The notes under the pieces: model-generated
What the model saw: only the letters and a program-made list of their open reading frames with translations
The model's database searches: none
Told to the model about the DNA's origin: nothing
In this document: positions 15,777 to 60,176 of the stretch, in pieces
How positions within the stretch are numbered: the first letter of the stretch is position 1
How the letters are laid out: each line of letters starts with the position of its first letter
Made by a program: the position numbers and the translations under genes
Assembly (NCBI GenBank): GCA_937125225.1
Contig: CAKZLE010000004.1
Location: 62,001-126,000, forward strand
DNA: 64,000 bases
Source of the DNA: an uncultured Spirochaetia bacterium
GTDB lineage: Bacteria > Spirochaetota > Spirochaetia > CAKZLE01
Reading direction: 5' to 3'

Positions 15777-16487
15777 TTGATGAGCACGGTTGTAGGAGAG
15801 AAAGCAGTGAACTATCGTATACTTGTTGTAGAAGATAATCCTGAGATCAGTAGAATAGTCTGTAAATATCTTGATACGAAGGATTACAGCTGGTCTCTTG
15901 CAGAGAATGGGCTCGATGCTCTTGAGCTCTTCAATGAGCAGGATTACCATCTAGTACTGCTAGATATCATGCTCCCCGATATCACCGGATTCACTATTAT
16001 CGAGCGGATTCGAGAGGTCTCTCAGGTTCCGGTACTCTTTGTGACCGCTAAAGAGCTTGAAGAGGATCGGTTGAAAGGGTTCGATCTCGGGGCAGATGAT
16101 TATATCGTAAAACCCTTCAGCCCGAGAGAACTGATCTGTCGCATCCAGGTGATCTTAAAACGGGTTTATAAAGAGAATGAAGAACCTCTTCGATATCATG
16201 AACTCTCTCTTGATCCCAAGACGATGAAAGCGAGTCTGAAGGATCGTCTTCTCGATCTTACCACCACGGAATTCAAGATCCTGAATACCTTCCTTCGGTA
16301 TAGTGAACAGGTACTATCGAGAGAACAGCTTATCAACCTCTCTTTCGGTAATGGCTATGAGGCTTTTGACAGGAACATTGATACCTATGTGAAGAAACTC
16401 AGGCAGAAACTCGAGGATGACCCAAAGCATCCAAGATTCATCCATACAAAATATGGTGCGGGTTATATCCTTCAGGAGGAGTTATGA
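15777..16487 (+). CDS. OmpR-family response regulator
   Basis: REC domain (VVEDNPEISRI, LLDIMLPDITGF, KPFSPREL) plus winged-helix C-terminus. Confidence 0.93.
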   Translation: MMSTVVGEKAVNYRILVVEDNPEISRIVCKYLDTKDYSWSLAENGLDALELFNEQDYHLVLLDIMLPDITGFTIIERIREVSQVPVLFVTAKELEEDRLKGFDLGADDYIVKPFSPRELICRIQVILKRVYKENEEPLRYHELSLDPKTMKASLKDRLLDLTTTEFKILNTFLRYSEQVLSREQLINLSFGNGYEAFDRNIDTYVKKLRQKLEDDPKHPRFIHTKYGAGYILQEEL

Positions 16488-17875
16488 CTATACGTCGAAT
16501 GACGCACATCCTCCTCCTCTCTACGACCATATTCTCCGCAGCCCTCATGGCTCTATTCCTGACAGTCCTCACTGATGCGGCTCAGCGGGAGATCACCCTT
16601 GAGGAGTATGACAATACTATTATCGAGTTTCAGATGATGGTGAGCTCTATTCTTGAAGAGGATCCTGAGTATCTTCCAACCATCTTTCCCCTCTTAGTGA
16701 GACAACCGATCCAAAGAGCTGTCGTCTTTGATCTGAAGGGCGAGGTCCTTGCAGAAGAACATGATAACCGTGTTCATATCATAGAGAATGGTCAGGAGTT
16801 CCTGCATGTGGGACCCAATGCCCCGCCTATGGTACCAAATGATCAGATCGATAGCTTTACCTATACGCTTACCTCACAAGAGGATGAACCTCTAGGGACG
16901 CTCGTAGTAGAACGGAGAATACTTGCTCGTGTGCCCTTTTTCAACAGGGTGTTCGATTCATCCCTGTTCAAGAACTTCCTGATTGCCCTCATCCCCGCTT
17001 TCATGGTCTCGATCCTACTGGGATTCTGGTTCAGCAAGACGCTGAGCAGGTCTCTCAAAGGTACTGCTGTGTATGCACAGAATCTCCAACAGGGAAGAGG
17101 GGCTATCTCTATTGATGATATCTCAACTTCAATAGCAGAGATCTCTACGATTCAGGACAGCCTTGTCAATCTAGATAACAGGCTCAAGATAAAACAAAAG
17201 AGTCGTAAGACCCTCATTGATAATATGGTACACCAGACGAGGACTCCTCTGACTATCTTGAAATCCCATCTTGAAGGTATCGAAGATGGAATCATGAATC
17301 TGGATGCAGATGAGCTGAAGATTCTCTATACTCAGATAGATAATATCACCGAAGTCATAGCGAATATGAGCGGAATGATAGATGCAGCAAAAGAGATCGT
17401 CGATCTTTCGATTGAGGAGATCTCGATACCTGCTCTTCTGCAGAAGGTCTCAGCAGGCTTCTCCTCTCAGTTCTCAAAGAAGGATCTTGCTCTGAGTGTA
17501 CAGCAGGATCCCCCCATCACGATCATCTCTGATAGATTCCTCCTGTCTCAGATCCTCTATAACCTTTTGAGTAATGCACAGAAGTACTCTAATGCTGAAG
17601 GCGAAGTTTCTATCCGATATACTAAGAAGGAGGATTCTCTTTTGATCAGAATCTCTGATACCGGTATTGGTATCAGAAAAGAGAGGCTCCCCAATATCTT
17701 TGATGCCTATTACCGGGCATATTCCTCTCAAGAGGTAAACGGAGAGGGGTTGGGTCTCTTTATCGTGAAAGAGAATATGATACTACTAGATGGAACGATC
17801 TCTGTGGAGTCAGATGAGGGGATAGGAACAGTCTTCACTCTAGAATTACCTCTCGTGAGAGAGATCGATCCATGA
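16484..17875 (+). CDS. Sensor histidine kinase
   Basis: Overlaps the RR gene by 4 nt; DHp-like VHQTRTPLTILKSHLEG; HATPase motifs NAQKY, DTGIGI, GEGLGLFI. Confidence 0.9.
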   Translation: MTIRRMTHILLLSTTIFSAALMALFLTVLTDAAQREITLEEYDNTIIEFQMMVSSILEEDPEYLPTIFPLLVRQPIQRAVVFDLKGEVLAEEHDNRVHIIENGQEFLHVGPNAPPMVPNDQIDSFTYTLTSQEDEPLGTLVVERRILARVPFFNRVFDSSLFKNFLIALIPAFMVSILLGFWFSKTLSRSLKGTAVYAQNLQQGRGAISIDDISTSIAEISTIQDSLVNLDNRLKIKQKSRKTLIDNMVHQTRTPLTILKSHLEGIEDGIMNLDADELKILYTQIDNITEVIANMSGMIDAAKEIVDLSIEEISIPALLQKVSAGFSSQFSKKDLALSVQQDPPITIISDRFLLSQILYNLLSNAQKYSNAEGEVSIRYTKKEDSLLIRISDTGIGIRKERLPNIFDAYYRAYSSQEVNGEGLGLFIVKENMILLDGTISVESDEGIGTVFTLELPLVREIDP

Positions 17876-17907: not shown

Positions 17908-18159
17908 CTAGAGGACAAGTATCGTTGTGATAGCACCTATTGCAAGTCCTACACAGGCATAAATACCTGCATACATGGATTCATTGAGAGAATCAGCGGC
18001 TTCTGGCTGTCTTGCTATTGATTCAACTGTGGAAGCGACTAACATCTCGATCCCTGCTGCAGCACCAGAGATCGCAAGACCTATTCCGATGTTCTTACCG
18101 AGATTATCCAACTCTTTATTGACACGATCGAGATCCTGTTGACCAAGACCCTCAGCCAT
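17908..18159 (-). CDS. F-type ATP synthase c-subunit-like proteolipid (orphan); true N-terminus probably further upstream (to about 18213)
   Basis: GIGLAISGAAAGIEMLVASTVESIARQPEAADSL matches the c-subunit helix 1 / polar loop (ARQPEA), followed by a hydrophobic second helix. No other atp gene in the window. Confidence 0.65.
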   Translation of the reverse strand: MAEGLGQQDLDRVNKELDNLGKNIGIGLAISGAAAGIEMLVASTVESIARQPEAADSLNESMYAGIYACVGLAIGAITTILVL

Positions 18160-18364
18160 GAGAGGTGTGACGCAGAAAACTAAGACAAATAGAATGCAAG
18201 TGAGCTTTTTTAAGGATGTACTCCTAAAAATTGTATATAAAGCGTCTTAGTGGAACACAGTTTATCTTCGTTATGTGAAATAGTTACTTCTCTTATCAAA
18301 CATGAATTCCTGTGGTAAGATTCAATGAGAGAATCCTATTGATCAAGAAATCGAGGTATGAAAG

Positions 18365-19000
18365 ATGACACCATTAGCACAAGCATATGAGAATAAAGCA
18401 AAGACCATAATCAAAGCATTAGAGAGGGGTAATATGGAAGGAACCTATTTCTCTACTAAGGAAGAAGCCAAAGCTTATGCTCTTCAGTTGATCCCTGACG
18501 GGTCGGTCATCTCTTGGGGGGGCTCTATGACCGTAGATACTCTTGGTATCAAGGAGTCTCTGAGAAATCGAGAGGTGACTTGTCTCGATCGTGAGAAGGC
18601 AACCTCACTAGAGGAGACGAAAGAGATCTATCGGAGGGCTTTCGGAGCCGACTACTTCTTGATGAGTTCCAATGCGATCACCATGGATGGGAAACTCATC
18701 AACATCGATGCAACCGGTAACCGGGTAGCTGCCCTAATCTTCGGACCTGAGCATGTGCTTGTGTTCGTTGGGATGAACAAGGTCGTGACAGATGAACGGG
18801 AGGGAATCAGCAGGGTCCATAATATTGCATCTCCCCCTAATGTGAATCGTATAGGTCTTAAGACTCCCTGTTCGACAACAGGCTTCTGTCATGACTGTCA
18901 TAGCGAAGGGTGCATCTGTTGCAATACCGTCATCACGAGACATAGCCGACAGAAAGGCAGGATACAGGTCCTTCTCATCGGGGAGAGTCTCGGCTTCTAA
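18365..19000 (+). CDS. LUD-domain (LutC/YkgG-like) protein
   Basis: DGSVISWGGSMTVDTLGI, GADYFLMSSNAITMDGKLINIDATGNRVAALIFGP. Confidence 0.85.
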   Translation: MTPLAQAYENKAKTIIKALERGNMEGTYFSTKEEAKAYALQLIPDGSVISWGGSMTVDTLGIKESLRNREVTCLDREKATSLEETKEIYRRAFGADYFLMSSNAITMDGKLINIDATGNRVAALIFGPEHVLVFVGMNKVVTDEREGISRVHNIASPPNVNRIGLKTPCSTTGFCHDCHSEGCICCNTVITRHSRQKGRIQVLLIGESLGF

Positions 19001-44010: not shown

Positions 44011-44041
44011 TGATTATACCATGAGAACCAGGAGGCCGCCA

Positions 44042-45859
44042 GTGGCAAATGTAAAAAATATGAAGATGACAGAACCAGTATACAGACTGAAAGGAAGTCT
44101 ACCGAAGATAGGTATCAGACCTACTATCGATGGACGAGGTGGGGTTAGAGAGACCTTAGAAGAGCAGACGATGAATATGGCAAAGAGTGCCGCAAAACTC
44201 ATCTCTGAGAATCTTACCCATCCATCAGGACACCCTGTCGAATGTGTTATCGCAGACAGTTGTATCGGTGGTGTGGCAGAGGCTGCAGCTTGTCAGGACA
44301 AGTTCGAGAGAGAACAGGTAGCCGTGACACTGACGGTGACTCCCTGTTGGTGTTATGGTTCAGAGACTATGGATCAGGATCCTAAGACCGTCAAAGCTGT
44401 CTGGGGTTTCAATGGTACTGAGAGACCTGGTGCGGTATATCTTGCAGCAGTCCTTGCCGCACATACACAGAAAGGTCTACCAGCTTTTGGTATCTATGGT
44501 AGAGATGTACAGGACTCAGGAGATACCACGATCACCGATGATGTGAAAACGAAGATCCTCAGATTTGCAAAATCAGGTCTTGCTGTAGCACAGATGAAAG
44601 GTAAGTCCTACCTATCCCTCGGCGGCTGTTCGATGGGTATCGCAGGTTCTATCGTAGATCAGGATTTCTTTCAGGAATATCTTGGCATGAGAACAGAGGT
44701 CATTGATATGAGTGAGATCGCTCGTAGAGTGGAAGAAGAGATCTATGACAAAGATGAGTTCGAACTGGCAAAAGAATGGGTCAAGCAGAACTGTGTAGAA
44801 CAGGAAGATACGGCCAATGAACCTTCAGCTAGAAGATCTGCAGAACAACGGGCTGCTGATTGGGATTATGTCATCAAGATGTTCATGATCGGTAGAGACC
44901 TGATGGTCGGTAACCCTAGACTCGCAGAGGCAGGATTCTATGAAGAGTCTCAAGGCCGAAATGCTATCGTAGGTGGATTTCAGGGACAACGATCTTGGAC
45001 TGATCACTGGCCAAATGGAGACTTCATGGAGACCTTCCTTAATACCTCCTTTGACTGGAATGGTATCAGAGAGGCCTTTGTCTTCGCCACAGAGAATGAT
45101 TCTTTGAATGGTGTTGCGATGTTATTCGGTCACCTTCTTACCAATAGATCTCAGATATTCTCAGATGTAAGGACTTACTGGAGTCCTGATGCGATCGAAC
45201 GAGTGACTTCATGGAAACCTGAAGGACTTGCGGAGAATGGATTCATCCACCTGATCAATTCAGGGTCTACTACCTTGGATGCTGCCGGTGAGATGAAAGA
45301 CGCTGCTGGAAAACCTGTGATGAAACCCTTCTGGGATATCACAACAGAAGATGTCGAGAAGACCTTGGATGCGACTGAGTTCTGTGTCGGAGATGGTGGA
45401 TACTTCAAAGGTGGTGGTTACTCATCTGACTTCTTGAGTAAGGGTGGTATGCCTGTGACCATGACCCGAGTGAATATGGTGAAGGGATTAGGCCCGGTGA
45501 TCCAGATCGCGGAAGGCTGGACGGTCGATATCCCTGAAGAGGTTCATGAAGTTCTCGATGCAAGAACCAATCCTACCTGGCCGACTACCTGGTTCGTGCC
45601 AAGAGTTGATGGTAAAGAGGGTCCTTTCAAAGACGTCTATGAAGTGATGGCGAACTGGGGTGCCAATCATGGTGCTATCAGTTATGGCCATATTGGAGCA
45701 GATCTGATAACTCTCTGTTCGATGCTAAGAATCCCTGTCTGCATGCATAATGTGGATAAGGACGATGTCTTTAGACCAAGTTACTGGAATGCTTTCGGAA
45801 TGAATAAAGAAGGTTCAGACTTCAGAGCATGTGATGCTCTAGGACCTCTATATAAATAA
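44042..45859 (+). CDS. fucI: L-fucose isomerase
   Basis: [47 protein letters not shown]; likely GTG start at 44042 after GGAGG (track start 44021). Confidence 0.92.
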
Positions 45860-45886
45860 TCCATTTTCAAAACTCCTCTCTTCTTT

Positions 45887-45917
45887 CAGACCCGGTTTTT
45901 TGCCGGGTCTGTTTTGA
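45887..45917 (+). terminator. Rho-independent terminator after fucI
   Basis: CAGACCCGG-TTTTTTG-CCGGGTCTG then TTTT. Confidence 0.88.
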
Positions 45918-46045
45918 TTATATTACAGAGAGCTCCAATAAGATGTTTCCCCAGTCCAAAGGCTGTGCTAGTATAGTCTTGACCCTGTTTCTATATATAT
46001 TGATAAAAATAGAGTATCATCATAGATACTGTTAGAGGATAGATT

Positions 46046-47641
46046 GTGTATAAACTATTGTTCGTTGATGATGAATCGATCATACGGGAGGGAATCTCGT
46101 CTGTCATATCGTGGGATGAACTCGGGTTCGAGTTGGTAGCAAAACTTGAGAACGGGTTACAGGCTATCGAATATATCAGAAAGAATCCGGTAGACATCGT
46201 GATCTCCGATATCAAGATGCCCAAAGTCGATGGTCTACAGCTCTCGAAGAAGATCTCTGAGGAATTTCCCGAGATCATGGTCATGCTCCTTTCGGGGTAT
46301 GATGACTTCGAATATGCTCAGGAGGCCTTGAAATACCAGATCAGTGAATTTCTTCTGAAGCCGATCACTGCTGATGAACTCTCGAAGGTCCTGACCTCCA
46401 TGAGGGAGCGTCTTGACGAACAACATGATGAAAAAGAAAACCAGAAGGAGCTTCAGAAGAAACTTGATGAGAGTTTCCCTCTCCTGAGAGAACGGTTTCT
46501 CTACCGTCTGATCTCTGGTAGGATCCCCAAAGAGGCTATCGCTGAAAGAAAGGACTATTTTCAATGGATGGACCTAGAGGGGCTGTATCTTGTCATGATC
46601 ATCGATATTCCTGAGACCAATGATGATCTCGATCATATAGCACTGATGCAGTTTATCGGTAATCAGTTGCGGGAGAGTGATGAGATCCTGATAAACCGCG
46701 ATGATAACTTCGTCCTGCTTCTCCAGGAATTCGTAGACTTGAGTGATCAGGCTTCCGTGGATGAGGAGAGTGCATCTCTCAAGAAGAGGAGCTATGAACT
46801 CGGCAAGAAGATATTCTCCTATCTGCACAAGAGATCCGATGATCAGGGTGCCATCGGTTGTGGGGAGGTCGTCAACTCTATCGATCATCTAGTCATATCC
46901 TACCGAGGGGCACATAGTGCAGCAGAGTATGTGAAGGTCATAGGTAATGAGATGATCATGCAGGTCTCTGAGATAAGGAACAGACAGACTATATCTCCTG
47001 AGGACTTCTTCCTGCTTTCAGAACAGTTGGTAGCAGAATTGAAACGGGGAGCAAGAGAGGATGCTGAATCTGCTCTTGATGCCATCTTCACCTACTTTGA
47101 GAAACACTATCTCACCCTTCATGAAGCATCGTTATATCTTGTGCGGCTCCAATCAGTTCTTCAGGATTTTCTTCAAGAACTTGGATTAGTACATGGAGAT
47201 GAGATAGTACCCTTTCAGAGTGATTACTTCGTCTCGATAAACCAGGCTCGGGGATTCTTCACCAAGGTCGTTCGTGATATCGAGGATAGAATCCAAGATA
47301 GACGACTCGATAATACCAGAAGTCGTGTGGATAGGGCAAAGAGTATCATCTCACAGCGTTATGCGGAGAAGGGCTTCTCCCTGCAAGAGATCTGTGATGA
47401 GTTGTTCCTCTCTACGAGTCAATTCAGTCTGCTCTTCAAAGAGGGGACGGGGAAGACCTTCGTCGAGTATCTTACCACATATAGGATCGAACAGGCTCAA
47501 AGCTTGTTGAAGAGCTCCTCAATGAGAGCCTATGAGATCGCAGAGCTCGTGGGTTTCAGTGATCCGAGATACTTCTCGATCATATTCAAAAAACTGACAG
47601 AGAAGACTCCTCTTGAATACCGAAGGAGTCTGTCGGAGTGA
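46046..47641 (+). CDS. YesN-type response regulator (REC + AraC HTH)
   Basis: LLFVDDESIIREGISSVISW; C-terminal AraC HTH YRIEQAQSLLKSSSMRAYEIAELVGFSDPRYFSIIFKK. Confidence 0.93.
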   Translation: MYKLLFVDDESIIREGISSVISWDELGFELVAKLENGLQAIEYIRKNPVDIVISDIKMPKVDGLQLSKKISEEFPEIMVMLLSGYDDFEYAQEALKYQISEFLLKPITADELSKVLTSMRERLDEQHDEKENQKELQKKLDESFPLLRERFLYRLISGRIPKEAIAERKDYFQWMDLEGLYLVMIIDIPETNDDLDHIALMQFIGNQLRESDEILINRDDNFVLLLQEFVDLSDQASVDEESASLKKRSYELGKKIFSYLHKRSDDQGAIGCGEVVNSIDHLVISYRGAHSAAEYVKVIGNEMIMQVSEIRNRQTISPEDFFLLSEQLVAELKRGAREDAESALDAIFTYFEKHYLTLHEASLYLVRLQSVLQDFLQELGLVHGDEIVPFQSDYFVSINQARGFFTKVVRDIEDRIQDRRLDNTRSRVDRAKSIISQRYAEKGFSLQEICDELFLSTSQFSLLFKEGTGKTFVEYLTTYRIEQAQSLLKSSSMRAYEIAELVGFSDPRYFSIIFKKLTEKTPLEYRRSLSE

Positions 47642-49419
47642 GAAATTCATTGCGATTCGGGACCCTTGGATCAAGAATATACTCATTCTTTATCCTCTTT
47701 ATCTTCGGGACTATCATCATCTTGCAGCTCGTTGCCTTTCAATTCACGATCAGTACCGTTCAAAATACGACCATCGAATCGAATAAGACCCTCTTAGGGC
47801 AACTCACTCGTCAGATTGAGTCCTACATAGAGGATATGGAACACCTTTCTCTTGCTGTCATCGAAGCTGAGGAGGTACAGACCTATCTAAGAGGAGAGGC
47901 TCCTGCTCCCTTGCCGGTCTATACGAAATTGATCCAGAAGCAGTTGGGGACCTATCTGAAGGCTCGCGAAGATATAAAGAATATCTACTTCTCAGATATG
48001 GTTGGTAATATTCTCTCGGCTGATGCATCAGTCGAGATCAATCAATATGCTGATGTGCTCAACAGTCAATGGTTCACCTCTGCAGTCGATAATCCCTCTG
48101 AGACTATCCTGTCCGGCTCCTATGTACAGAATCTCATTACTGAGGACTACTCATGGGTGACCTCAATCAGTAGAGGGATCGTATCGTTGGATACGGGAAC
48201 ACTCTTGGGGGTCCTTCTTGTAGACCTGAAGTTCGATGGGATCAAGGAACTTTGTCAGTCAATGGTCACGGGTAGAAAGGGGTATAACTTCATCATCGAT
48301 GATCAGGGAGTATATGTCTTCCATCCTACACAACAGTTAGTATACAGCGGCGTGAAGGATGAACCTCTCGATGAGATTCTGGAGTCTATCCATAGTGGTG
48401 AGGATAATACCTATAGTGATGGGGAGAAATATTATTTCATCAATGATTCAGAGACCACCGGCTGGCATATGGTGAGTGTCCTCTATGAGGATGATATTAT
48501 CACCGACTGGCAGTATGTTCAGATTTCCTTCGCTGCCATCGGTCTGATCCTATTCTTAGTCGTCGGTCTTGTGACGAATAGGATCACCCGATCTATCACA
48601 AGTCCTGTGAAGAAACTACAGAAGATCATGAAGAGTGTGGATGAGGGAGAGTTCCATCTAGTCGGAGAGATCCATGCGACTGATGAGATCAAAGAGCTTG
48701 CTCACGATTATGACATCATGGTAACTCGGATCAGAGAGTTGATGCATGAGAATGTAAAGGAACAGGAACTCAAACGAAAGAGTGATCTGAAGGCGTTACA
48801 GGCTCAGATCAATCCTCACTTTCTGTATAACACGCTAGATTCGATCATCTGGATGGCAGAGATGAAACAACATAGAGAGGTGGTTCTTATGACCTCAGCT
48901 CTGTCAAAACTCATGAGAATCAGCATCAGTAAAGGTCGGGAGATCATTCCGATCAAAGATGAGGTCGCGCATGTAGAATCCTATCTGACAATCGAAGAGA
49001 TGCGGTACAAAGGAAAGTATGATTCAGAGATCCTGATCGATCCTGAGTTGTATGAGGAGATGACCTTGAAGATCACCCTGCAACCACTGGTAGAGAATGC
49101 GATCTATCATGGGATCAAAGAGTCTGATCATAAGGGACTTATCCAGATCATTGGAACACGTGAGAAGGATACTATTGTGTTGAAAGTCATAGATAATGGA
49201 AATGGCATGACACCTGAAAAGGTGAAGATGCTCAATAGTCCCTATACAGTCTATGAGGATGACCAACCCTGGGTCAATCTGAGAGGGATGGGAGTCAGAA
49301 ATGTTCATGAGAGGATCCAACTCTATTTTGGTGAAGAGTATGGACTCCATTGTGAGAGTCTTTTAGGTGTCGGTACGACGATTACGGTGAGAATCCCGGT
49401 GAGAGGGGGCGTCAGATGA
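47638..49419 (+). CDS. YesM-type sensor histidine kinase (Cache-HAMP-His_kinase)
   Basis: LKALQAQINPHFLYNTLDSIIWMAE; LQPLVENAIYHGI; IDNGNGM. Confidence 0.93.
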   Translation: MRNSLRFGTLGSRIYSFFILFIFGTIIILQLVAFQFTISTVQNTTIESNKTLLGQLTRQIESYIEDMEHLSLAVIEAEEVQTYLRGEAPAPLPVYTKLIQKQLGTYLKAREDIKNIYFSDMVGNILSADASVEINQYADVLNSQWFTSAVDNPSETILSGSYVQNLITEDYSWVTSISRGIVSLDTGTLLGVLLVDLKFDGIKELCQSMVTGRKGYNFIIDDQGVYVFHPTQQLVYSGVKDEPLDEILESIHSGEDNTYSDGEKYYFINDSETTGWHMVSVLYEDDIITDWQYVQISFAAIGLILFLVVGLVTNRITRSITSPVKKLQKIMKSVDEGEFHLVGEIHATDEIKELAHDYDIMVTRIRELMHENVKEQELKRKSDLKALQAQINPHFLYNTLDSIIWMAEMKQHREVVLMTSALSKLMRISISKGREIIPIKDEVAHVESYLTIEEMRYKGKYDSEILIDPELYEEMTLKITLQPLVENAIYHGIKESDHKGLIQIIGTREKDTIVLKVIDNGNGMTPEKVKMLNSPYTVYEDDQPWVNLRGMGVRNVHERIQLYFGEEYGLHCESLLGVGTTITVRIPVRGGVR

Positions 49420-50405
49420 AGAACTGGTTCGTATTATTATTGAGTTTCATGGCAGCTTTGATTCTTTTCTTTGTCCTTACGATCTTCTATGAACAATCCA
49501 CCCCTCAGAAACTCGAACTTGATACTCCAATCCCGATCGTCCTGAAGTCCCGTATGGTAGAACCGATGGAATTCTGGGATGTGGTACATCGTGGTATCTA
49601 TGAAGCTGCAAAAGAATATGGGATCGATGTCAAGATCTCCGGTCCTCTCTATGAGAAGGAGATCGATCAACAGATAGAGATCGTAGAGGCTATATTGAAT
49701 GAGCATCCACCCCTACTAGTCCTGTCAGCGACTGACTATGTAAAACTCGTATCTACTGTCGAGAAGGCAGATAAGATGGGAATACCTGTGATAACCATCG
49801 ACTCAGGAGTCGATTCAGATATCCCGGTCTCATTCATCGCTACAGATAACATCGCTGCAGGAGAGAAGGCTGGTTTAGAGTTGCTGCGGCTTCTAGAGAA
49901 CAAAGAGAATCCAAAGATCGCAATCGTCAGTCATATCAAAGAGGCAGCCTCTGCTATCGATAGAGAGGCTGGAGTTCGAAAGGCTCTAGCTGGAGAGAAT
50001 ATCGTAGGTACTTGGTACTGTGATGTAGAAGAGGATCGTGCCTATGAGATCACCAAAGAACTCATTGATACTTATGATCTAGATGGGATCGTTGCACTTA
50101 ACGAAGTCTCCTCCCTCGGTGTCGCTCGAGCAGTGGATGAGTACCAGGTGAAGGATGCTCTTGTAGTTGTCGCCTTCGATAATGCGATCAGAGAGTTGGC
50201 ATTTCTGGAATCCGGTGTGATAAAAGCTACAGTGGTTCAGAGACCTTATAATATGGGATATATGACAGTGAAGATCGCAGTAGACTATTTGAAGGGAGAG
50301 GATGTTCCTGATTTCCTCGATACTCAATCGGTACTCATCACCCAAGAGAATATGTTCCAGAGGGAATATCAGGAGCTTCTCTACCCCTTCAGTAATGCTG
50401 AATGA
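49416..50405 (+). CDS. Membrane-anchored sugar-binding protein (Peripla_BP_4-like)
   Basis: N-terminal hydrophobic anchor; YEAAKEYGIDVKISGP, VVAFDNAIRELAFLESGVIKATVVQRPYNMGY. Confidence 0.87.
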   Translation: MKNWFVLLLSFMAALILFFVLTIFYEQSTPQKLELDTPIPIVLKSRMVEPMEFWDVVHRGIYEAAKEYGIDVKISGPLYEKEIDQQIEIVEAILNEHPPLLVLSATDYVKLVSTVEKADKMGIPVITIDSGVDSDIPVSFIATDNIAAGEKAGLELLRLLENKENPKIAIVSHIKEAASAIDREAGVRKALAGENIVGTWYCDVEEDRAYEITKELIDTYDLDGIVALNEVSSLGVARAVDEYQVKDALVVVAFDNAIRELAFLESGVIKATVVQRPYNMGYMTVKIAVDYLKGEDVPDFLDTQSVLITQENMFQREYQELLYPFSNAE

Positions 50406-50568
50406 TTAAAAAAGTATACGAATTTCCTAGCTAATTCCTCTGATTTAGGAATAATTTAAACATTCTCCGTAAAATCCTCTATTTCGCGATCAAAAAAACG
50501 GGTTGATACTAATATTGTCGAAATTATGCAGGTGCAAAGGGTGTACCTGTCTTTCAGGGAGCGAAAGT

Positions 50569-52068
50569 TTGAGTAAACAAATTCTTTCAGTGAAACAAAT
50601 CGATAAACGATTCAAAGGTGTTCACGCATTAAAAGGTATAGATTTTGACCTGAATGAGGGCGAAGTCCATGCACTAGTAGGTGAGAACGGTGCCGGGAAA
50701 TCGACCCTAATGAAGATCTTGACTGGAATCTATGAGAAAGATTCTGGAGAAATGCACTATCTAGGTAAATTGTATCATCCACACGGCCCAAAACAGGCAC
50801 TGCAGATGGGCATTGGTATCATCCATCAGGAATTGAACATGATGGATCACCTTACTGTTGCACAGAATATCTTCATTGGTCGAGAATCGATGCATAAAAG
50901 CGGATTGTTTCTTGATGAAAAAGCCCAGAATCAGAGGGCTCAGGCATTATTTGATCGATTGAACATGAATATCGATCCATCTGAACTGTTGGGAAACCTC
51001 ACTGTAGGTATGCAACAGATGGTAGAGATCGCAAAAGCTGTATCACATGATCTTAAGGTGTTGATTCTTGATGAACCAACAGCTGCACTCACCAATACAG
51101 AGATCGATGAGTTATTCACGATCATGAGGAATCTTTCTAAACAGAAAGTAGCAATGATCTATATCTCACACCGAATGGATGAGATCCATAGAATCACCAA
51201 CCGGGTAACAGTCATGCGAGATGGTGAGTATATTGGAACAAGGGATACCGATAAGGTGACAAAAGAAGAGATCATACAAATGATGGTCGGTCGAGTCATC
51301 TATGAAGACCCAAAACAGAAGAGTAATGTAGAAGATGGAGCACAAGTCGTCTTGAAGGTCTCGAACCTTCATGCCGGTAAGATGGTCAAGGATGTCAGTT
51401 TCGAACTCAGACGTGGTGAGATCCTGGGATTCTCAGGTTTGATCGGGGCTGGTAGAACAGAGACAGTAAGAGCTCTCTTCGGAGCAGACAAGATAGAAAG
51501 TGGAACAATCGAGATCAATGGGAAACCTGCATTGATCAAGACTCCTAGGGATGCTGTCGAACATGGTATCGGATATCTTTCAGAAGATAGAAAGCGATAC
51601 GGATTATGTACCGGACTCAGTGTGATCGATAACTCGATCATGGCTACCTATGAATCTTATCAGAAGTATTCATTCATGCAACAGGGGAAGATGAGAAAGG
51701 TCGCACAGCAGTTCAGTGAAGCTATGAAGATAAAGACTCCATCCTTGGAACAACTTGTCGTCAATCTTTCTGGTGGTAACCAGCAGAAAGTAGTCATAGC
51801 AAAATGGTTGATCAAGAACAGTGATATCCTCATCTTCGATGAACCGACTCGAGGGATCGATGTCGGTGCTAAGAGTGAGATCTATCATCTGATGAATGAA
51901 CTGGCTAAAGAGGGCAAGTCGATCATCATGATCTCTTCAGAGATGCCTGAAGTATTAAGAATGAGTGATAGGGTCATCGTGATGTGCGAAGGCCGAATCA
52001 CTGGAGAACTCGATATCAGTGAAGCCAATCAAGAGAAGATCATGGCTTTCGCGACAATGAACAATTAG
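50569..52068 (+). CDS. Sugar ABC transporter ATP-binding protein (RbsA/MglA-type, two NBDs)
   Basis: GENGAGKSTLMKILTGIY; LILDEPTAALT; LSGGNQQKVVIAKWL; likely TTG start at 50569 (track start 50503). Confidence 0.93.
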   Translation: MSKQILSVKQIDKRFKGVHALKGIDFDLNEGEVHALVGENGAGKSTLMKILTGIYEKDSGEMHYLGKLYHPHGPKQALQMGIGIIHQELNMMDHLTVAQNIFIGRESMHKSGLFLDEKAQNQRAQALFDRLNMNIDPSELLGNLTVGMQQMVEIAKAVSHDLKVLILDEPTAALTNTEIDELFTIMRNLSKQKVAMIYISHRMDEIHRITNRVTVMRDGEYIGTRDTDKVTKEEIIQMMVGRVIYEDPKQKSNVEDGAQVVLKVSNLHAGKMVKDVSFELRRGEILGFSGLIGAGRTETVRALFGADKIESGTIEINGKPALIKTPRDAVEHGIGYLSEDRKRYGLCTGLSVIDNSIMATYESYQKYSFMQQGKMRKVAQQFSEAMKIKTPSLEQLVVNLSGGNQQKVVIAKWLIKNSDILIFDEPTRGIDVGAKSEIYHLMNELAKEGKSIIMISSEMPEVLRMSDRVIVMCEGRITGELDISEANQEKIMAFATMNN

Positions 52069-52084
52069 GTAGAGGTAAGAGAGA

Positions 52085-53323
52085 ATGGAAAAGAAAAAGA
52101 ACCTTATCGAGGATATTAAGAGTAAAGGACTTCAGAAGATTCTTGCACCTGCTGCATTGATCATCCTGTATGCTTTCTTTGCGATCTTCGGAAGAAACTT
52201 CCTGTCATATACGACTTTGGTGAATATTCTAGATTCATCATACTATATTGGTTTTATTGCGATCGGTGTAACCTTCGTCATTATCACAGGTGGTATCGAC
52301 CTATCCTGTGGAACAGTAATGATGTGTGCAGCGATCATCGGTGGTACGGCATATAAGACTTGGGGATGGCCAATGTGGATATCTCTTCTTCTTATAATCT
52401 TTGTTGGTTTCCTATTCGGATTATTCAATGGTATCATGGTCTCAAAACTGAAACTCCCTCCCTTCATCGCAACATTAGGAACGATGATGATCTCAAAGGG
52501 TGTTGGATCTATCGTATCAAACGTAAGATCAGCTACATTCCCAACGAGAACAGAGTCAGCAGGTTGGTTCAAAGGTATCTTCAAGTATATCACTCCGGAC
52601 AAGACTTCTATTCCTACTGGAGCTTTCGTACTGTTCGGTGTCGCATTCATCTGTTATCTGATCCTGACCAAGACGAAGATGGGACGTTATACCTTCGCAA
52701 TCGGATCTAACAAAGAGGCTGCAAGACTCTCCGGTATCAATGTAGAGAAATGGGAGATGATGGTCTATATCGTAGTCGGAATCCTTGCAGGTGTCGGTGG
52801 TATCGCATTCGCAGCTGTTTATACGACAGTTATGCCTGCTCAGGGAGCTGGATTCGAACTCTATGCAATTGCAGGAGCGGTAATCGGTGGTACATCACTT
52901 TCAGGTGGTATCGGTACTATCTCTGGAACCCTGATCGGTGTATTCATCATGAGTGTACTGAGAACTGGTCTTCCTTCAATGGACCTACAGTCTCATTACC
53001 AGACATTCTTCACTGGTGTTGTAGTAATCCTTGCGGTTTTACTCGATATCTATAAGACTAATCAGTCAACACAGGAGAGGGTCCTTGCCCCTTCAGAGAA
53101 ATATAAACAGTCAATGAACGAGAAGATCGAAGATCTTAAACAGGCATTAGCTTCTGCTTCAGATGATAAAGCTAGTGGAATCAAGGCAGAGATGGCAGCT
53201 CTCACAAAAGAGAGAAATCATACCTACTCACGAATGAGAGCTGAAGAAAAAGCAGAAGCAGCTCGAGTCAAGAAGGCAGAGAGACTTGCAGAGAAGGAAT
53301 TCAAGCAGAGTCTTTCTAGCTAA
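52085..53323 (+). CDS. Sugar ABC transporter permease (RbsC/MglC-type)
   Basis: FVIITGGIDLSCGTVM; FAIGSNKEAARLSGINVEKWEM; charged C-terminal tail. Confidence 0.92.
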   Translation: MEKKKNLIEDIKSKGLQKILAPAALIILYAFFAIFGRNFLSYTTLVNILDSSYYIGFIAIGVTFVIITGGIDLSCGTVMMCAAIIGGTAYKTWGWPMWISLLLIIFVGFLFGLFNGIMVSKLKLPPFIATLGTMMISKGVGSIVSNVRSATFPTRTESAGWFKGIFKYITPDKTSIPTGAFVLFGVAFICYLILTKTKMGRYTFAIGSNKEAARLSGINVEKWEMMVYIVVGILAGVGGIAFAAVYTTVMPAQGAGFELYAIAGAVIGGTSLSGGIGTISGTLIGVFIMSVLRTGLPSMDLQSHYQTFFTGVVVILAVLLDIYKTNQSTQERVLAPSEKYKQSMNEKIEDLKQALASASDDKASGIKAEMAALTKERNHTYSRMRAEEKAEAARVKKAERLAEKEFKQSLSS

Positions 53324-53378
53324 TTATATTGTGAATACCCGGTACGTATGTACCGGTGAAATAAAGAGGAGGAACTTA

Positions 53379-54473
53379 ATGAAAGTTTCAAAAAGATTTG
53401 TAGCAATTCTTTTAGTACTCGCTTTTCTAGGAACTTCTATGGCCGTGTTCGCACAGGGTCAGGAAGAACAAGCCTACATAGCTGTTGTATCTAAAGGTGA
53501 ACAGCATGACTTCTGGCAGCAAGTAAAACTTGGTGCTAAAGATGCAGCTGAGAAACTCGGTGTAGATATGACCTTTGAAGGACCACCATCAGAAAGTGAT
53601 GTACAGATTCAGGTAGAGATGTTGAATTCAGCTATGGCTAAGAATCCTGTAGCTATTGCTCTTGCAGCTCTAGATACTGGATCAGTTATGGACCAGCTTC
53701 AGGACGCTCTTGATAAGAATATCCCAGTAATCGGATTCGACTCTGGTGTTCCAAACGCTCCTGCTGGATCAATCTATGCAAATGCATCAACTGACAACTT
53801 CAATGCTGCCGGTGTTGCTGCTGAAAAAATGTTCGAAGTCATCAAAGCTGACATCGAAGCTGCAACAGCTGCTAACCCAGTAACAATCGTTGTTATGAAC
53901 CAGGACGCTTCTGGTGAATCACTTCTTAGCCGAGGAAAAGGTTTCAGAGATACAATGATCGAATTGATCGTTGCTGAGACTGCTCTTGGAAAAGACGACA
54001 TCAAAGTTATGGGTAACACTGCATATATCTCAGCAGATAACCCAACTAGCGGCTCAAAAGTCATGATCGATATGGTAGTTCCTGCTTCTGCTGATGCAAC
54101 TGATGCAACAGCTTCAGCACAGGCTGTATTGAACAAGGTTGAAGACGCTGGTACTCTTGGTATCTTCTGTTCAAACGAATCAACAGTCAAGGGTCTCCTA
54201 GCTGCAACCAATGATGGTTCAGATCTTCCTGGAAAATTCCCTGGACTCATAGTTGTAGGTTTTGATGCTGGTAAAGCACAGAAAGACGCTGTTCGAGCTG
54301 AGTACTTCTTAGGATCAATCACACAGGATCCTTACTCAATCGGATACAAAGCAGTATCTCTTGCTTACGATGCATACATGGGCAAAGCAGTATCAGATGT
54401 TGATACAGGTGCTAAGTTCTACAACAGTTCTAACATGGACGATGCTGACATCACCGGTCTTCTTTACGACTAA
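53379..54473 (+). CDS. Sugar ABC transporter substrate-binding protein
   Basis: Start MKVSKRF at 53379 after GAGGAGG; signal peptide; Peripla_BP_4-like ALAALDTGSVMDQLQDALDKNIPVIGFDSGV. Confidence 0.92.
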   Translation: MKVSKRFVAILLVLAFLGTSMAVFAQGQEEQAYIAVVSKGEQHDFWQQVKLGAKDAAEKLGVDMTFEGPPSESDVQIQVEMLNSAMAKNPVAIALAALDTGSVMDQLQDALDKNIPVIGFDSGVPNAPAGSIYANASTDNFNAAGVAAEKMFEVIKADIEAATAANPVTIVVMNQDASGESLLSRGKGFRDTMIELIVAETALGKDDIKVMGNTAYISADNPTSGSKVMIDMVVPASADATDATASAQAVLNKVEDAGTLGIFCSNESTVKGLLAATNDGSDLPGKFPGLIVVGFDAGKAQKDAVRAEYFLGSITQDPYSIGYKAVSLAYDAYMGKAVSDVDTGAKFYNSSNMDDADITGLLYD

Positions 54474-54500
54474 GATCAAGTATTGTTAATATGCTAATAA

Positions 54501-54527
54501 AGAGTCACTTCGGTGGCTCTTTTTTTA
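54501..54527 (+). terminator. UUCG-loop rho-independent terminator
   Basis: AGAGTCAC-TTCG-GTGGCTCT followed by T7. Confidence 0.92.
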
Positions 54528-54980
54528 CGCTTGGTAAATAAGAGTTTTCATGTTCTAAATGGTAGAGCTGATTTGATAGTATCCGATTGCTACATGAACA
54601 GGAACATTCCCATAGAGGATCCTGTATGAAGCCGTTGTTATCCGTCAGATCACATGATGAGACAAGGGCGTTCACGTCGATTCCATAGGATTCCAAAAGA
54701 TGTCCGGGAATCTGTAGGCTAATTCTTCGGGGTAGGTACAGTTCGAACAGAACTTACACTTCCTAGCATTCAGAGGAAGTATCTCTCCGAAGAAAGATAT
54801 GTCTTCGAGGATATATGTATGGATACTACGGTAGGTCTCATCATGGATACGCTTTGCCTCTTCCATCCCTTCAATATCAAAAGAATCCTCTAGTTGAAAG
54901 ATAATCTGTACGACTAACCCTTTCCTGAATCTTCTTACATATATGATCGATTCATCCAGTGGTCCCACAGCTCGAGACAT
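54505..54980 (-). pseudogene. Decayed/frameshifted DUF2284-like metal-binding protein
   Basis: LEDSFDIEGMEEAKRIHDETYR...KCKFCSNCTYPEELAYRFPD in one frame continues as LLESYGIDVNALVSSCDL in another frame near 54680. Confidence 0.65.
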
Positions 54981-55167
54981 ACCTAGTTCATGCCATAATA
55001 GCCACAGGAGTTTTACTCACATGCAGTTCTGAAATCAGATGAGAAACTCATATTCGCGATATCTATGATCCTTGAGGAATCAGCCCCTTGTCTTACGTCC
55101 TCTTGTGATAAGTCGGTTATATCAGCATAAGCTGACTATACTCTGATTTGAAGAGGGATGAAAAAAA

Positions 55168-55203
55168 AGCCCCTATAGACCTTTTGGGTGGATCTATAGG
55201 GGA
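55168..55203 (-). terminator. Rho-independent terminator downstream of aldo/keto reductase
   Basis: CCCCTATAGA-N13-TCTATAGGGG, with A8 on + (U-run on - strand). Confidence 0.85.
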
Positions 55204-55230
55204 AAAAGGAGAGAAAAGTATTATGGAGAA

Positions 55231-56268
55231 TTAAGGAGGTGTGATTTCTCCATCAAGATCCCAGAGTGCTGTCCAGTCCTGGTCTTCCTTCCACAGGAAT
55301 ACCTGACCTTTGATCAAACGGCAATTCTTATTAAGATTAGCTAGAGCAGTCATCTCATCCTCAGTTAACGGATCGATCACTGAGCATTCTAGGTTGCTCA
55401 GATATTCATTCTTTCTTACTGAGAAGGGGATCGGGGTCTGCCCTCGCTGTACTGCCCATTTAATACAGATTACTGCTGGGTGAACGTTATGGTTCTTTGC
55501 GATCTCGAGTACCACAGGATCTTCGATATCGACAGTATCATTTTCGGTCTTGTCTCTATCAGGTCTCGTAGGAGATCCAATAGGGGTGAAGCCGATAGGT
55601 TGTACATCATTTGCTTTGAGGAAATCAAAGAACTCTTTCTGCTGGAAATGGGGATGGAGCTCCATCTCATTCACTGCAGGTTTGATCTTTGCATCTCTTA
55701 AGATGAGTTTCATCTTTGCGATAGTGGTGTTTGAGGTCCCGATATTCCTGACTAGTCCCAACTCTACGAGTTCTTCCATCTGTCTCCAAGTCTTCATGAA
55801 GTTCTCATGAATATAAGGTTTAGCATCAGGTGATCGTGAATCAACATCACAACCCGGTGCATGAAAGTTAGGGAAGGGCCAGTGAACGAGATAAAGGTCC
55901 AGGTAATCGACCTGTAGATCTTTCAATGACTGTTTACATGATTTGAGAACATCACCTTCACCGTGCATGTTGTTCCATACTTTTGAGGTGATCCATAATT
56001 CTTCTCGTTTGAGACCTCCATCCATGATGGATCTGAAAGCCTCTCCGATATTCTTCTCATTGCCATAGACTGAGGCACAGTCAAAATGACGATAACCGAT
56101 CTCTGCAGCTCCAACGACTGCGTCTGCAATATCTTCTGCACTAAAGCGGTCAGAACCGAATGTTCCAAGTCCTACTGCAGGAAGTAGATCCCCTGATCTC
56201 AATACTCTTTTTGGTACGAGATTCGGATCGATTCCATCACTTGCCTTGGTGAATGTTCTAATTGACAT
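55231..56268 (-). CDS. Aldo/keto reductase
   Basis: LPAVGLGTFGSD, YRHFDCASVYGNEKNIGEAF, LDLYLVHWPF, RNIGTSNT. Confidence 0.93.
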   Translation of the reverse strand: MSIRTFTKASDGIDPNLVPKRVLRSGDLLPAVGLGTFGSDRFSAEDIADAVVGAAEIGYRHFDCASVYGNEKNIGEAFRSIMDGGLKREELWITSKVWNNMHGEGDVLKSCKQSLKDLQVDYLDLYLVHWPFPNFHAPGCDVDSRSPDAKPYIHENFMKTWRQMEELVELGLVRNIGTSNTTIAKMKLILRDAKIKPAVNEMELHPHFQQKEFFDFLKANDVQPIGFTPIGSPTRPDRDKTENDTVDIEDPVVLEIAKNHNVHPAVICIKWAVQRGQTPIPFSVRKNEYLSNLECSVIDPLTEDEMTALANLNKNCRLIKGQVFLWKEDQDWTALWDLDGEITPP

Positions 56269-56293
56269 AGTGAACTCCTTCTGTTTCTTAGCT

Positions 56294-56311
56294 GTTATAG
56301 TACACTATAAC
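56294..56311. promoter_or_regulatory. Operator copy 1 (aldo/keto reductase promoter)
   Basis: GTTATAGT-AC-ACTATAAC, 25 nt upstream of the start codon at 56268. Confidence 0.8.
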
Positions 56312-56461
56312 ACGATATGTTTTGTTCGTAAAGGGTAAAGATAGATAATATTCATATAGCATTATGTTGACTGTTCTATCTGTTCTAGGACAGTTAATTG
56401 TTGACGGTTTTTCACTATGCCTCTACTATAGAGTTATCACTGAATCAAGAAGGTAAATCAG

Positions 56462-57526
56462 ATGACCCTACAGGTTGATAAGAATAGTACGATCCCCCCA
56501 TTCCAGCAGATCAAGAACCAGATAAAGGCAGCAATCGTCTCAGGAGAGTATCCTGCAGAGGCTGCATTACCTTCAGTCAGAGAAGTCTCAAGGATCACCA
56601 ATGTTGCTTTGACGACAGCTCAGCGCGTATATACTGATCTTAGAAATGAAAACTATATCTATTCAATGAGAGGTAAGGGGAATTTTGTCAAATCTCTTGC
56701 TGATAGGATCAACCATCAGATTCATGTGTTTCTTCCCTCATCCTCCCTCTCCTTCTTTACCAAGATCCTTCAAGGGGTATTCTCTGCAGCCTATTCAAAG
56801 AACTGGGAAGTCATAGTACATAGTCTTGAGACTGATAAACTTCTTTGGAATGAGCATACGATCGAGATGCTCACAGATGCGATCGATCAGAATGCTGGAG
56901 TGATCTTCATTGAGGAAGCTTTCGGTGATGTTAAACAGAAATGTATCGAGGCTGCGAAGATCATTCCCTTTGTATCCATCGAGTGGAAACTTCAAGGGGC
57001 CTCGTCAGTCACGAATGATTATGAACACTCGATGTACCAGGCCATGAAGTATCTCGTTGAGCAAAAGAGTAGTAAGCGCTTTCTTATATTAAAGGGACGT
57101 GATTATCAGTATAACGCTTCACAGAAGATCCAGGGAATCCATAAGGTGGTTGAAGAATTCAATCTTTTGATCAATAGAGACATCTATTTCAGAGATAGTG
57201 ATTTTGATGCGATCTCCGGTTATGATGTGACACAGGGGTTCTTTAAGGATAAATCGGTAGATACGGTTATCTGTGCCAATGACTATGAGGCAATCGGGGT
57301 CATCGGAGCACTCACCCAGAAGGGTCTTCTCGTAGGAAAGGATGTAAGAGTCCTCGGCTATGGTGATATGACAGATAAGACCACCAACTATTTCCCTTTA
57401 TCCACGGTATCTCAGAATCTTGCTCAGGTCGGCCTCAGTGCGGTGGAAGAGATCTTCAGATTATCGAGTGGTGAATCTATCCGCGATATTACTGTTGCAG
57501 CACATCTTGAGATGAGAAACACCTAA
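56462..57526 (+). CDS. GntR-family HTH fused to LacI-type periplasmic-binding sensor domain
   Basis: PPFQQIKNQIKAAIVSGEYPAEAALPSVREVSRITNVALTTAQRVYTDL; C-terminal VDTVICANDYEAIGVIGAL...VLGYGD. Confidence 0.9.
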   Translation: MTLQVDKNSTIPPFQQIKNQIKAAIVSGEYPAEAALPSVREVSRITNVALTTAQRVYTDLRNENYIYSMRGKGNFVKSLADRINHQIHVFLPSSSLSFFTKILQGVFSAAYSKNWEVIVHSLETDKLLWNEHTIEMLTDAIDQNAGVIFIEEAFGDVKQKCIEAAKIIPFVSIEWKLQGASSVTNDYEHSMYQAMKYLVEQKSSKRFLILKGRDYQYNASQKIQGIHKVVEEFNLLINRDIYFRDSDFDAISGYDVTQGFFKDKSVDTVICANDYEAIGVIGALTQKGLLVGKDVRVLGYGDMTDKTTNYFPLSTVSQNLAQVGLSAVEEIFRLSSGESIRDITVAAHLEMRNT

Positions 57527-57575
57527 AAGCATAAGAAGATACGAGAAAGAAGGATTGTTTAAATGGGATTATGAT

Positions 57576-57593
57576 GTTATAGTGTACTATAAC
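57576..57593. promoter_or_regulatory. Operator copy 2 (FGGY kinase operon)
   Basis: GTTATAGT-GT-ACTATAAC, 23 nt upstream of ATG 57617. Confidence 0.8.
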
Positions 57594-57616
57594 AGTTAGT
57601 CATCAAGGAGTATTAT

Positions 57617-59113
57617 ATGAGTAAATATATCCTGAGTATCGATCTTGGCACCACAAGCATGAAAGCTGCGGTATACCAATTAGATTTTACCCCTGTATAT
57701 ACAGTACAGAAGGGGTATCAGACAACATTCCCTCATGAGGGCTGGGCTCAACAACACCCTGATATGTGGTGGAAGGTCCTCTCAGAGGTGGTGAAGGAGC
57801 TCTTAGAAAAGAGTCGGATAGCACCTTCAGATATTGCCGTCATCGGTATTGATAGTATGTCTTCTGCAGTAGTCCCCCTCGATGGAGAGGGTAATGTCCT
57901 CTATCCAGCAATGCTCTGGATGGATAGGCGAGCACGAACAGAGTGTGATGATATTGACTATATATTCGGAAACAAGTTCTTCACGATCAGTGGGAACCAT
58001 AATGACCCCTCGAACTTCGGGCCTAAGATCATGTGGCTCAAGATGAATGAACCTGATGTCTATGATAAGACATCGGTGATTCTCCATGCCAATGGATTTC
58101 TTGCCTATCGACTCACTGATGAACTGACTATGGATGTCAGTGAATGTGGATTATCGCAGTTATGCTATACCGCAGAGTCGGCATGGTCTGAGGAACTTCT
58201 CACAGGCTGTGGTATCGATAGAGAGAAATTACCTGAGATAAGAGAATGTACCTCAGTCATCGGAAAGGTGACTAACAGAGCAGCCGCTATTACCGGTCTT
58301 GCAGCGGGAACTCCAGTAGTCGCAGGATCCATGGATAATGTGGCCGCAGGTGTTGGAGCAGGACTCTATCAACAGCATGATGTCTATGTCTCAGCGGGAA
58401 CGGTAACTACTGTGAACAGTTGCATCAGTACTCCTGAATATAGTGAGAAGATGCATCTGTATCGACATGCAGTCCCGAACCGTTGGCTATCAGTAGCGGG
58501 AGTCGATTATGGTGGAGCTGGCTTGAAATGGTTCAAAGAGATATTGGAGAATGATGATTTCAAAGAGATTGACCGATTGGCCACAGAGGCGGTCACACGG
58601 GTGAATTCACCTCTGTTCTTCCCCTATATGGTAGGGCAGAGAGCACCTTTATGGAATGATGACACGAGGGGAGTCCTCTATGGACTGACTCCTGCAGTAA
58701 CGAAAGGTGAACTCCTTCGGACTCTCATGGAGGGTAATGTCCTTGGTGTCAGAAGAATCTTCGGAGAGCTCAACAGGATGGGGGTCCGACCAAACCAGGT
58801 GCGACTCACAGGTGGTTGTGCAAACAGTACTATCTGGTCTGAGTTGTTTGCAGATATCCTTTCAATGGAGGTGGTCATTCCCGGTTCAGGAGATGTTGCT
58901 TCCCTTGGCTCTGCTATGATCGCAGCAGTCGGAGCTGGTATCGTAGATGATTTTGAATCTGCAGCAGAGACAATTCCTATTAGAGAGACCTTTACTCCTC
59001 ATGGAGAGGAGATACATAGGATGTATGAAAAGAGAATGGAACTTTTTAATACTATTTACGAAAAATTAGAAGATACCTTCCATACCTTTGGTGCCTCTGT
59101 AAAAGAGTCCTAG
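57617..59113 (+). CDS. FGGY-family carbohydrate kinase (xylulokinase-like)
   Basis: ILSIDLGTTSMKAAVYQ; PAMLWMDRRA; VRLTGGCANSTIWSELFADI. Confidence 0.9.
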   Translation: MSKYILSIDLGTTSMKAAVYQLDFTPVYTVQKGYQTTFPHEGWAQQHPDMWWKVLSEVVKELLEKSRIAPSDIAVIGIDSMSSAVVPLDGEGNVLYPAMLWMDRRARTECDDIDYIFGNKFFTISGNHNDPSNFGPKIMWLKMNEPDVYDKTSVILHANGFLAYRLTDELTMDVSECGLSQLCYTAESAWSEELLTGCGIDREKLPEIRECTSVIGKVTNRAAAITGLAAGTPVVAGSMDNVAAGVGAGLYQQHDVYVSAGTVTTVNSCISTPEYSEKMHLYRHAVPNRWLSVAGVDYGGAGLKWFKEILENDDFKEIDRLATEAVTRVNSPLFFPYMVGQRAPLWNDDTRGVLYGLTPAVTKGELLRTLMEGNVLGVRRIFGELNRMGVRPNQVRLTGGCANSTIWSELFADILSMEVVIPGSGDVASLGSAMIAAVGAGIVDDFESAAETIPIRETFTPHGEEIHRMYEKRMELFNTIYEKLEDTFHTFGASVKES

Positions 59114-59138
59114 GTGGAAGGAGATAAGGAGTAGCGGT

Positions 59139-60176
59139 GTGAAAGCAGCATTAAGAAGTGCGCTGAAACAGGTAGAGTGTGTAGAGATCGATAAACCTAC
59201 AGCAGGTGATGGTGAAGTCATCATCAAAGTCGCATTTGCAGGGATCTGTGGATCAGATATTCATCGAATGGTCGATGATAATGAGAAATGGAACCGCATC
59301 GTCCTTGGCCATGAGTTCTCAGGTTATATCGAGGAGATAGGAGAAGGGGTCGAAGGTCTCACTAAAGGTGATCGTGTCACTGCAGTCCCCCTAGAACCTT
59401 GTCACCACTGTAAGTGGTGCCAGCAGGGACTCTATTCACTTTGCGGTGGATACTCATTCGTCGGTTCAAGAAAACATGGGGCATTTGCCCAGTTTGTCCG
59501 GGTAAAGGCTGATAATGTCCTGAAACTCGGGGACAAGGTCAGTATGCGACAGGGAGCTCTGATGGAGCCTGTCACAGTGACCCTTCATCCGGTACTCGAG
59601 TTGGGGACCATTGCAGGTAAAAGAGCTCTTATTATCGGTTCAGGTACCATTGGGGTACTTGCCATATCGGTACTGAAGAAGATGGGGGTCTCTGATGTGA
59701 CTGTTTCAGATGTCGTAGATCAGAAACTCGAACTTGCAACGAGATGCGGTGCAGACCGGGTGGTCAACGTGCTCAACGAACCTCTTACAGAGGTAGCTGA
59801 GAAAGAGGGCCTCTATGATATCGTACTTGAATGTTCAGGAACCCATATTGGGAAGAATGATGCTATGAATGTGGCTAATGGGAAGGGCACTATCGTTTTT
59901 GTCGGTACCTCTCCAAAAGATGCACAGTTCAGTGGAGAGACTCTTGAGAGGATCAACCGTAAAGAGTTGACTATCAAGGGTTCTTGGATGAACTATTCAG
60001 CACCATGGCCTGGTAATGAATGGAAGATCGTGAACGATATGATGAATGAAGGACTTATAGATGAGAAGCTTATTGTCTCACATGAGTTTGGAGTAGAAGA
60101 TATGCAGAAGGCATATGATGTGATCTTCGGTGGTGAGTACTACGTGAAGATCCTTATAGCTATGGGAGAAGAATAA
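59139..60176 (+). CDS. Zinc-dependent medium-chain dehydrogenase (GatD-like)
   Basis: FAGICGSDIHRMVDDN; GHEFSGYIEEIGEGV; CHHCKWCQQGLYSLC. Confidence 0.88.
   Translation: MKAALRSALKQVECVEIDKPTAGDGEVIIKVAFAGICGSDIHRMVDDNEKWNRIVLGHEFSGYIEEIGEGVEGLTKGDRVTAVPLEPCHHCKWCQQGLYSLCGGYSFVGSRKHGAFAQFVRVKADNVLKLGDKVSMRQGALMEPVTVTLHPVLELGTIAGKRALIIGSGTIGVLAISVLKKMGVSDVTVSDVVDQKLELATRCGADRVVNVLNEPLTEVAEKEGLYDIVLECSGTHIGKNDAMNVANGKGTIVFVGTSPKDAQFSGETLERINRKELTIKGSWMNYSAPWPGNEWKIVNDMMNEGLIDEKLIVSHEFGVEDMQKAYDVIFGGEYYVKILIAMGEE

What the first reader, a model, noticed from the sequence alone, without database searches (positions are those of the whole stretch)
17908..18225. Orphan ATP-synthase c-subunit-like protein with the ion-binding carboxylate missing from helix 2
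Seen: a small two-helix protein with the c-subunit loop ARQPEA, no other atp genes nearby. Aligning on RQP, the position of E. coli Asp61 (20 residues after the loop Arg) is Val, and helix 2 (MYAGIYACVGLAIGAITTILVL) has no carboxylate. Helix 1 instead carries a Glu (GAAAGIEML), aligned near E. coli positions 28-29. Established: the E. coli subunit c A24D/D61G double mutant retains function, so relocation of the carboxylate to helix 1 is biochemically possible. Inference: either a c-ring variant with a relocated site or a c-like proteolipid with another function.
Basis: partly seen in the sequence, partly recalled or inferred. Interest (0 to 1): 0.65.

Follow-up and report, generated by a model that had tools for sequence, protein, structure and literature searches.

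The report
Orphan ATP-synthase rotor subunit, ion-site lost
A spirochaete that runs on a different type of ATP synthase carries one stray gene derived from the standard rotor subunit c, in which the proton-carrying acid present in 165 of 166 relatives (the other is unreadable) has become valine, so it probably no longer moves ions and is either a reused membrane protein or a remnant.

Summary
In detail: a reading frame at 17908-18213(-) encodes a two-helix protein with the subunit-c loop SIARQPEAA. It is a real, though below-cut-off, relative of F-type subunit c (NCBIfam PRK06876 E 3e-10; best PDB hits are c subunits; AlphaFold model matches solved c subunits, rmsd 1.2-1.4 Å). The Asp61 position is Val. 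In 166 homologues fetched here that position is Glu 163, Asp 2, unreadable 1. Position 29, Glu here, is Gly/Ala/Ser in all 166. The genome has no F-type a or gamma gene and uses an A/V-type ATPase. The relocated-site reading is not supported: the new Glu is at E. coli 29, not 24 or 28; on a helical wheel it lies about 120 degrees from the ion-site face, and no partner subunits were found. Helix 2 is more diverged than in any of 116 compared homologues, while the loop is ordinary. Codon usage is native. No valid start codon follows the Shine-Dalgarno sequence (TTA stands there); ATG 18159 would give 83 residues without the signal-peptide-like segment. Best reading: an orphan, ion-incompetent subunit-c derivative that forms a membrane hairpin, probably repurposed, possibly a recent relic. 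It was found in one genome only.

The parts
17908..18159 (-). Core coding frame from the first standard start (ATG) to TAG: 83 aa, two-helix subunit-c-like hairpin
18160..18213 (-). In-frame upstream stretch (18 codons) coding for a signal-peptide-like segment LKKLTCILFVLVFCVTPL, continuing into MA of the core; begins with a non-standard TTA codon
   Evidence: hydropathy; codon usage of this short stretch is not typical
18221..18225 (-). Shine-Dalgarno-like AGGAG, 7 nt before TTA
   Evidence: read directly
17995..18024 (-). Conserved cytoplasmic-loop motif ESIARQPEAA (approximate limits)
18046..18048 (-). Codon GAG for the helix-1 Glu (E. coli position 29); Gly/Ala/Ser in all 166 homologues
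17950..17952 (-). Codon GTA for Val at the E. coli Asp61 position; Glu/Asp in 165 of 166 homologues, one unreadable

Best explanation
It is a former F-type ATP synthase subunit c, now alone in a spirochaete that uses an A/V-type ATPase. Shown: the homology, the hairpin fold prediction, the loss of the ion-binding carboxylate, the absence of F-type a and gamma partners, and native codon usage. Inferred: it inserts as a two-helix hairpin with the RQP loop in the cytoplasm, helped by an N-terminal signal-like segment, and does not bind or carry H+ or Na+. It is kept, or was kept until recently, for a different structural or accessory role in the membrane, most likely as a homo-oligomer held together by helix 1. 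Inferred and least certain: that it is still translated, since no standard start codon follows the Shine-Dalgarno sequence.
For: F0-c profile matches E 3e-10 and PDB sequence hits to c subunits E 8e-6. AlphaFold pLDDT 88.9, about 97 in the hairpin; the listed PDB fold matches are ATP-synthase c subunits, TM up to 0.86, rmsd 1.2-1.4 Å for the closest (the best E-value is only 0.006). Val at the carboxylate position against Glu/Asp in 165 of 166 homologues, one unreadable. No F0 a, no F1 gamma; an A/V operon with its own K subunit is present. Codon usage of the 83-codon frame is at the 89th percentile of gene chunks in this window; other frames are negative or near zero. The loop is ordinary (rank 81 of 116) while helix 2 is more diverged than in all 116; unusual residues 0/11 in the loop against 17/28 in helix 2, Fisher p 0.0007. 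Under unconstrained change of that size an open frame survives in only about 8-15% of simulations, indels ignored.
Against: No ortholog found: none in 395 class and 393 phylum genomes, at the LUD locus of the sister genus, in plasmids, phages or viral contigs, so selection cannot be measured. No valid start codon after the Shine-Dalgarno sequence. Many of the homologues were fetched with a loop pattern, which biases the loop comparison. Oligomerisation is untested.
Confidence: 0.55

Rival explanations
1. A decaying relic: an F-type c gene left behind after loss of the F0F1 operon, or acquired alone, now without a start codon and drifting towards loss.
For: TTA in place of a start codon after a good Shine-Dalgarno sequence. 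Loss of the one essential residue and of the Gly motif. No F-type a or gamma genes. The longest branch in the tree. Only in this genome.
Against: Frame intact over 100 codons with native codon usage. Loop conserved while helix 2 diverged. Helix 2 is still a good membrane helix.
Confidence: 0.35
2. A working rotor subunit whose ion site has moved to the helix-1 Glu, as in the E. coli A24D/D61G revertant.
For: A Glu sits in helix 1, and the E. coli precedent exists (Miller, Oldenburg and Fillingame 1990, seen here only as a reference title; its details are from memory).
Against: Glu is at 29, about 120 degrees from the 24/28 face and one residue off the Fusobacterium second Glu. No a or gamma subunit in the genome. 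A single Glu-to-Gln change among ten is enough to stop ATP synthesis in Bacillus PS3 (PMC8809890).
Confidence: 0.04
3. It is incorporated as a minor subunit into the A/V-type rotor ring of this cell.
For: The cell has an A/V ring, and mixed rings with a carboxylate-less hairpin exist in Acetobacterium woodii (PDB 4bem).
Against: Its loop and helices are F-type and it is a single hairpin, whereas the K subunit here is a double hairpin of another subfamily. It is not in the A/V operon.
Confidence: 0.04

Closest known systems
F-type ATP synthase subunit c (ATP-synt_C, PF00137; PRK06876, TIGR01260)
   Same: two-helix hairpin, SIARQPEA loop, sequence homology, predicted fold
   Different: no helix-2 Asp/Glu, Glu in the helix-1 Gly motif, no atp operon, scores below curated cut-offs
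Fusobacterium nucleatum two-carboxylate c-ring (PDB 3zk1; PMC3692424)
   Same: a Glu in helix 1
   Different: there Glu32 is one residue nearer the N-terminus, lines the ion site and accompanies Glu65; here the helix-2 Glu is absent
Carboxylate-less hairpin within Acetobacterium woodii c1 (PDB 4bem_J)
   Same: a c hairpin without the ion-binding acid
   Different: there it is half of a fused double hairpin in a mixed ring with competent subunits; here it is a lone hairpin gene
Subunit c with N-terminal signal-like extension in Planctomycetota and Neomarinimicrobiota (L097, L055, L039, L037)
   Same: hydrophobic leader plus linker before helix 1
   Different: L097, L055 and L039 keep Glu at 61; in L037 that codon is ambiguous

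Membership tests
F-type ATP synthase subunit c | significant match to family profile | tested here: inconclusive
   E 3e-10 (PRK06876), 2e-6 (TIGR01260), but below every curated cut-off; Pfam 17.2 of 24 bits
F-type ATP synthase subunit c | hairpin of two helices with polar RQP-type loop | tested here: met
   (fold is a prediction)
F-type ATP synthase subunit c | Asp/Glu in the middle of helix 2 | tested here: not met
   Val; Glu/Asp in 165 of 166 homologues, one unreadable
F-type ATP synthase subunit c | Gly/Ala motif at helix-1 positions 23, 25, 27, 29 | tested here: not met
   G23, A25 and G27 kept, but Glu at 29, never seen in 166
F-type ATP synthase subunit c | encoded with other F0F1 genes in the genome | tested here: not met
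   no PF00119 and no PF00231 match in the own genome, 97% complete
F-type ATP synthase subunit c | assembles into a ring and carries ions | not testable with these tools
   needs purification and electron microscopy or a flux assay
Two-carboxylate (Fusobacterium-type) c subunit | Glu at the helix-1 site position (13 residues before the loop Arg) plus helix-2 Glu | tested here: not met
   Ile at that position, Glu one residue later, no helix-2 Glu
A/V-type subunit K | two fused hairpins encoded in an A/V-type operon | tested here: not met
   one hairpin; the K gene of this genome is elsewhere, on contig C5

The most novel reading that the evidence does not exclude
A subunit-c hairpin has been released from the ATP synthase and reused as a stand-alone, ion-incompetent oligomeric membrane protein in an A/V-ATPase spirochaete: a c-ring or c-oligomer without a motor.
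Probability: 0.3. Interest if true: 0.65.

Novelty: new variant of a known kind. Interest (0 to 1): 0.36.

Why it matters
The helix-2 carboxylate is among the most invariant residues of the rotary ATPases. A maintained single-hairpin homologue without it, in a cell without F0F1, would show that the c scaffold can serve another purpose and would offer a natural ion-dead oligomer to study. If it is a relic, it only records a past F-type gene in this lineage.

Tried and rejected
Rejected: relocated ion site (wrong helix face, no partner subunits). Rejected: alignment artefact (the ungapped RQP-anchored alignment and the gapped alignments both put Val at position 61). Rejected: a conserved pairing with the neighbouring histidine kinase: its 39% paralog on contig C20 has no c-like neighbour, and the sister genus has the LUD gene without this kinase or a c-like gene beside it. 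Led nowhere: exact-peptide scans of genome and viral contigs, tblastn of plasmids and phages, and a paper search for carboxylate-less c paralogs.

Full report
What is there. On the minus strand, a frame open from about 18246 to the TAG at 17908-17910 encodes ...LKKLTCILFVLVFCVTPLMAEGLGQQDLDRVNKELDNLGKNIGIGLAISGAAAGIEMLVASTVESIARQPEAADSLNESMYAGIYACVGLAIGAITTILVL. It lies convergent to a response regulator/histidine kinase pair (15777-17875) and divergent from a LUD-domain gene (18365-19000). It is not in an operon with either.

Start of the gene. A good Shine-Dalgarno sequence, AGGAG at 18225-18221, is followed after 7 nt by TTA AAA AAG, reading into a signal-peptide-like segment (LKKLTCILFVLVFCVTPLMA). 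TTA is not a standard start codon. The first standard start is ATG 18159, which has no Shine-Dalgarno and gives an 83-residue protein without the leader. Either an original TTG/ATG start has mutated, or the assembly has one wrong base, or ATG 18159 is used. The tools cannot decide.

Homology. NCBIfam F-type subunit c models match at 3e-10 and 6.5e-10, and further F0-c models more weakly. All scores are below curated cut-offs; Pfam ATP-synt_C gives 17.2 bits against a cut-off of 24. The nearest solved proteins are c subunits of Bacillus PS3 and B. pseudofirmus, E about 1e-5 (the source organisms are named). AlphaFold predicts a hairpin at mean pLDDT 88.9. The Foldseek matches listed are ATP-synthase c subunits, with rmsd 1.2-1.4 Å for the closest, although the E-values are modest for so short a hairpin.

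The missing carboxylate. Anchored on RQP without gaps, the E. coli Asp61 position is Val. Among 166 homologues taken from Spirochaetota and many other phyla it is Glu in 163, Asp in 2 and unreadable in one. Position 29, Glu here, is Gly in 159, Ala in 4 and Ser in 3. Position 28, the Gln32/Glu32 position of Ilyobacter and Fusobacterium, is Ile here. Alignment to 1yce and 3zk1 puts the Gln/Glu 13 residues before the loop Arg, whereas the window's Glu is 12 before it. On a helical wheel position 29 is about 120 degrees from the 24/28 face. Position 29 belongs to the GxGxGxG motif of the inner helices; replacing that motif by Ala, or two of its glycines by Ser, already widens rings (PMC2914638). 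A relocated site is therefore unlikely.

Genome context. The own genome (97% complete) has an A/V-type operon on contig C5 (the subunit names are read from the sequences). It has no match to F0 a or F1 gamma, while each of those models finds its target in 9 of 14 control genomes. The only PF00137 match in this genome that passes the search threshold is the K gene.

Distribution. No closer relative than ordinary c subunits (up to about 43% identity, under 35 bits) was found in 395 class genomes or 393 phylum genomes. Exact-peptide scans of genome and viral contigs, and tblastn of plasmids and phages, gave nothing. The sister-genus genome has the LUD gene (63%) without a c-like gene beside it. 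So this is a singleton so far.

Constraint or decay. Codon usage of the frame matches the window's genes, and the other frames do not. Against 116 homologues the loop is typical (rank 81), helix 1 is low (rank 7) and helix 2 is lower than in all of them. The terminal branch, 1.11, is the longest in the tree. Uniform decay would not be expected to spare the loop (0/11 unusual residues against 17/28 in helix 2, p 0.0007), although many homologues were collected through a loop pattern, which weakens this test. Simulated unconstrained change at 0.3-0.5 substitutions per site leaves the frame open in 15-8% of runs. I therefore favour a protein that was kept under changed constraint after losing its ion-translocating role, with a recent relic as the main rival.

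Comparison. The carboxylate-less c hairpins I know of are halves of fused or mixed rings: in the Acetobacterium c1 subunit one hairpin has Gln at the site (4bem_J), and the first hairpin of this genome's own K subunit has Gln by reading. A lone single-hairpin gene lacking the acid in a cell without F0F1 is, to my knowledge, a new variant. N-terminal leader extensions are not unusual: several Planctomycetota and Neomarinimicrobiota subunit-c genes have them.

Noticed in passing
L035:7704-14942 (genome contig C5): A/V-type ATPase operon (subunits by reading) followed by an IspG-like gene; the K subunit has Gln at the site of hairpin 1 and Glu in hairpin 2.
   Followed up: partly
window 15777-17875: Response regulator and histidine kinase pair; the kinase has a 39% full-length paralog on contig C20 (L127).
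   Followed up: partly
window 44021-61486: By reading only: a sugar-utilisation cluster (fucose-isomerase-like gene, AraC-type regulator and sensor kinase, ribose-type ABC transporter, sugar kinase, dehydrogenase, tagatose-bisphosphate-aldolase-like gene).
   Followed up: no
L097, L055, L039, L037: Subunit-c genes with signal-peptide-like N-terminal extensions in Planctomycetota and Neomarinimicrobiota.
   Followed up: partly
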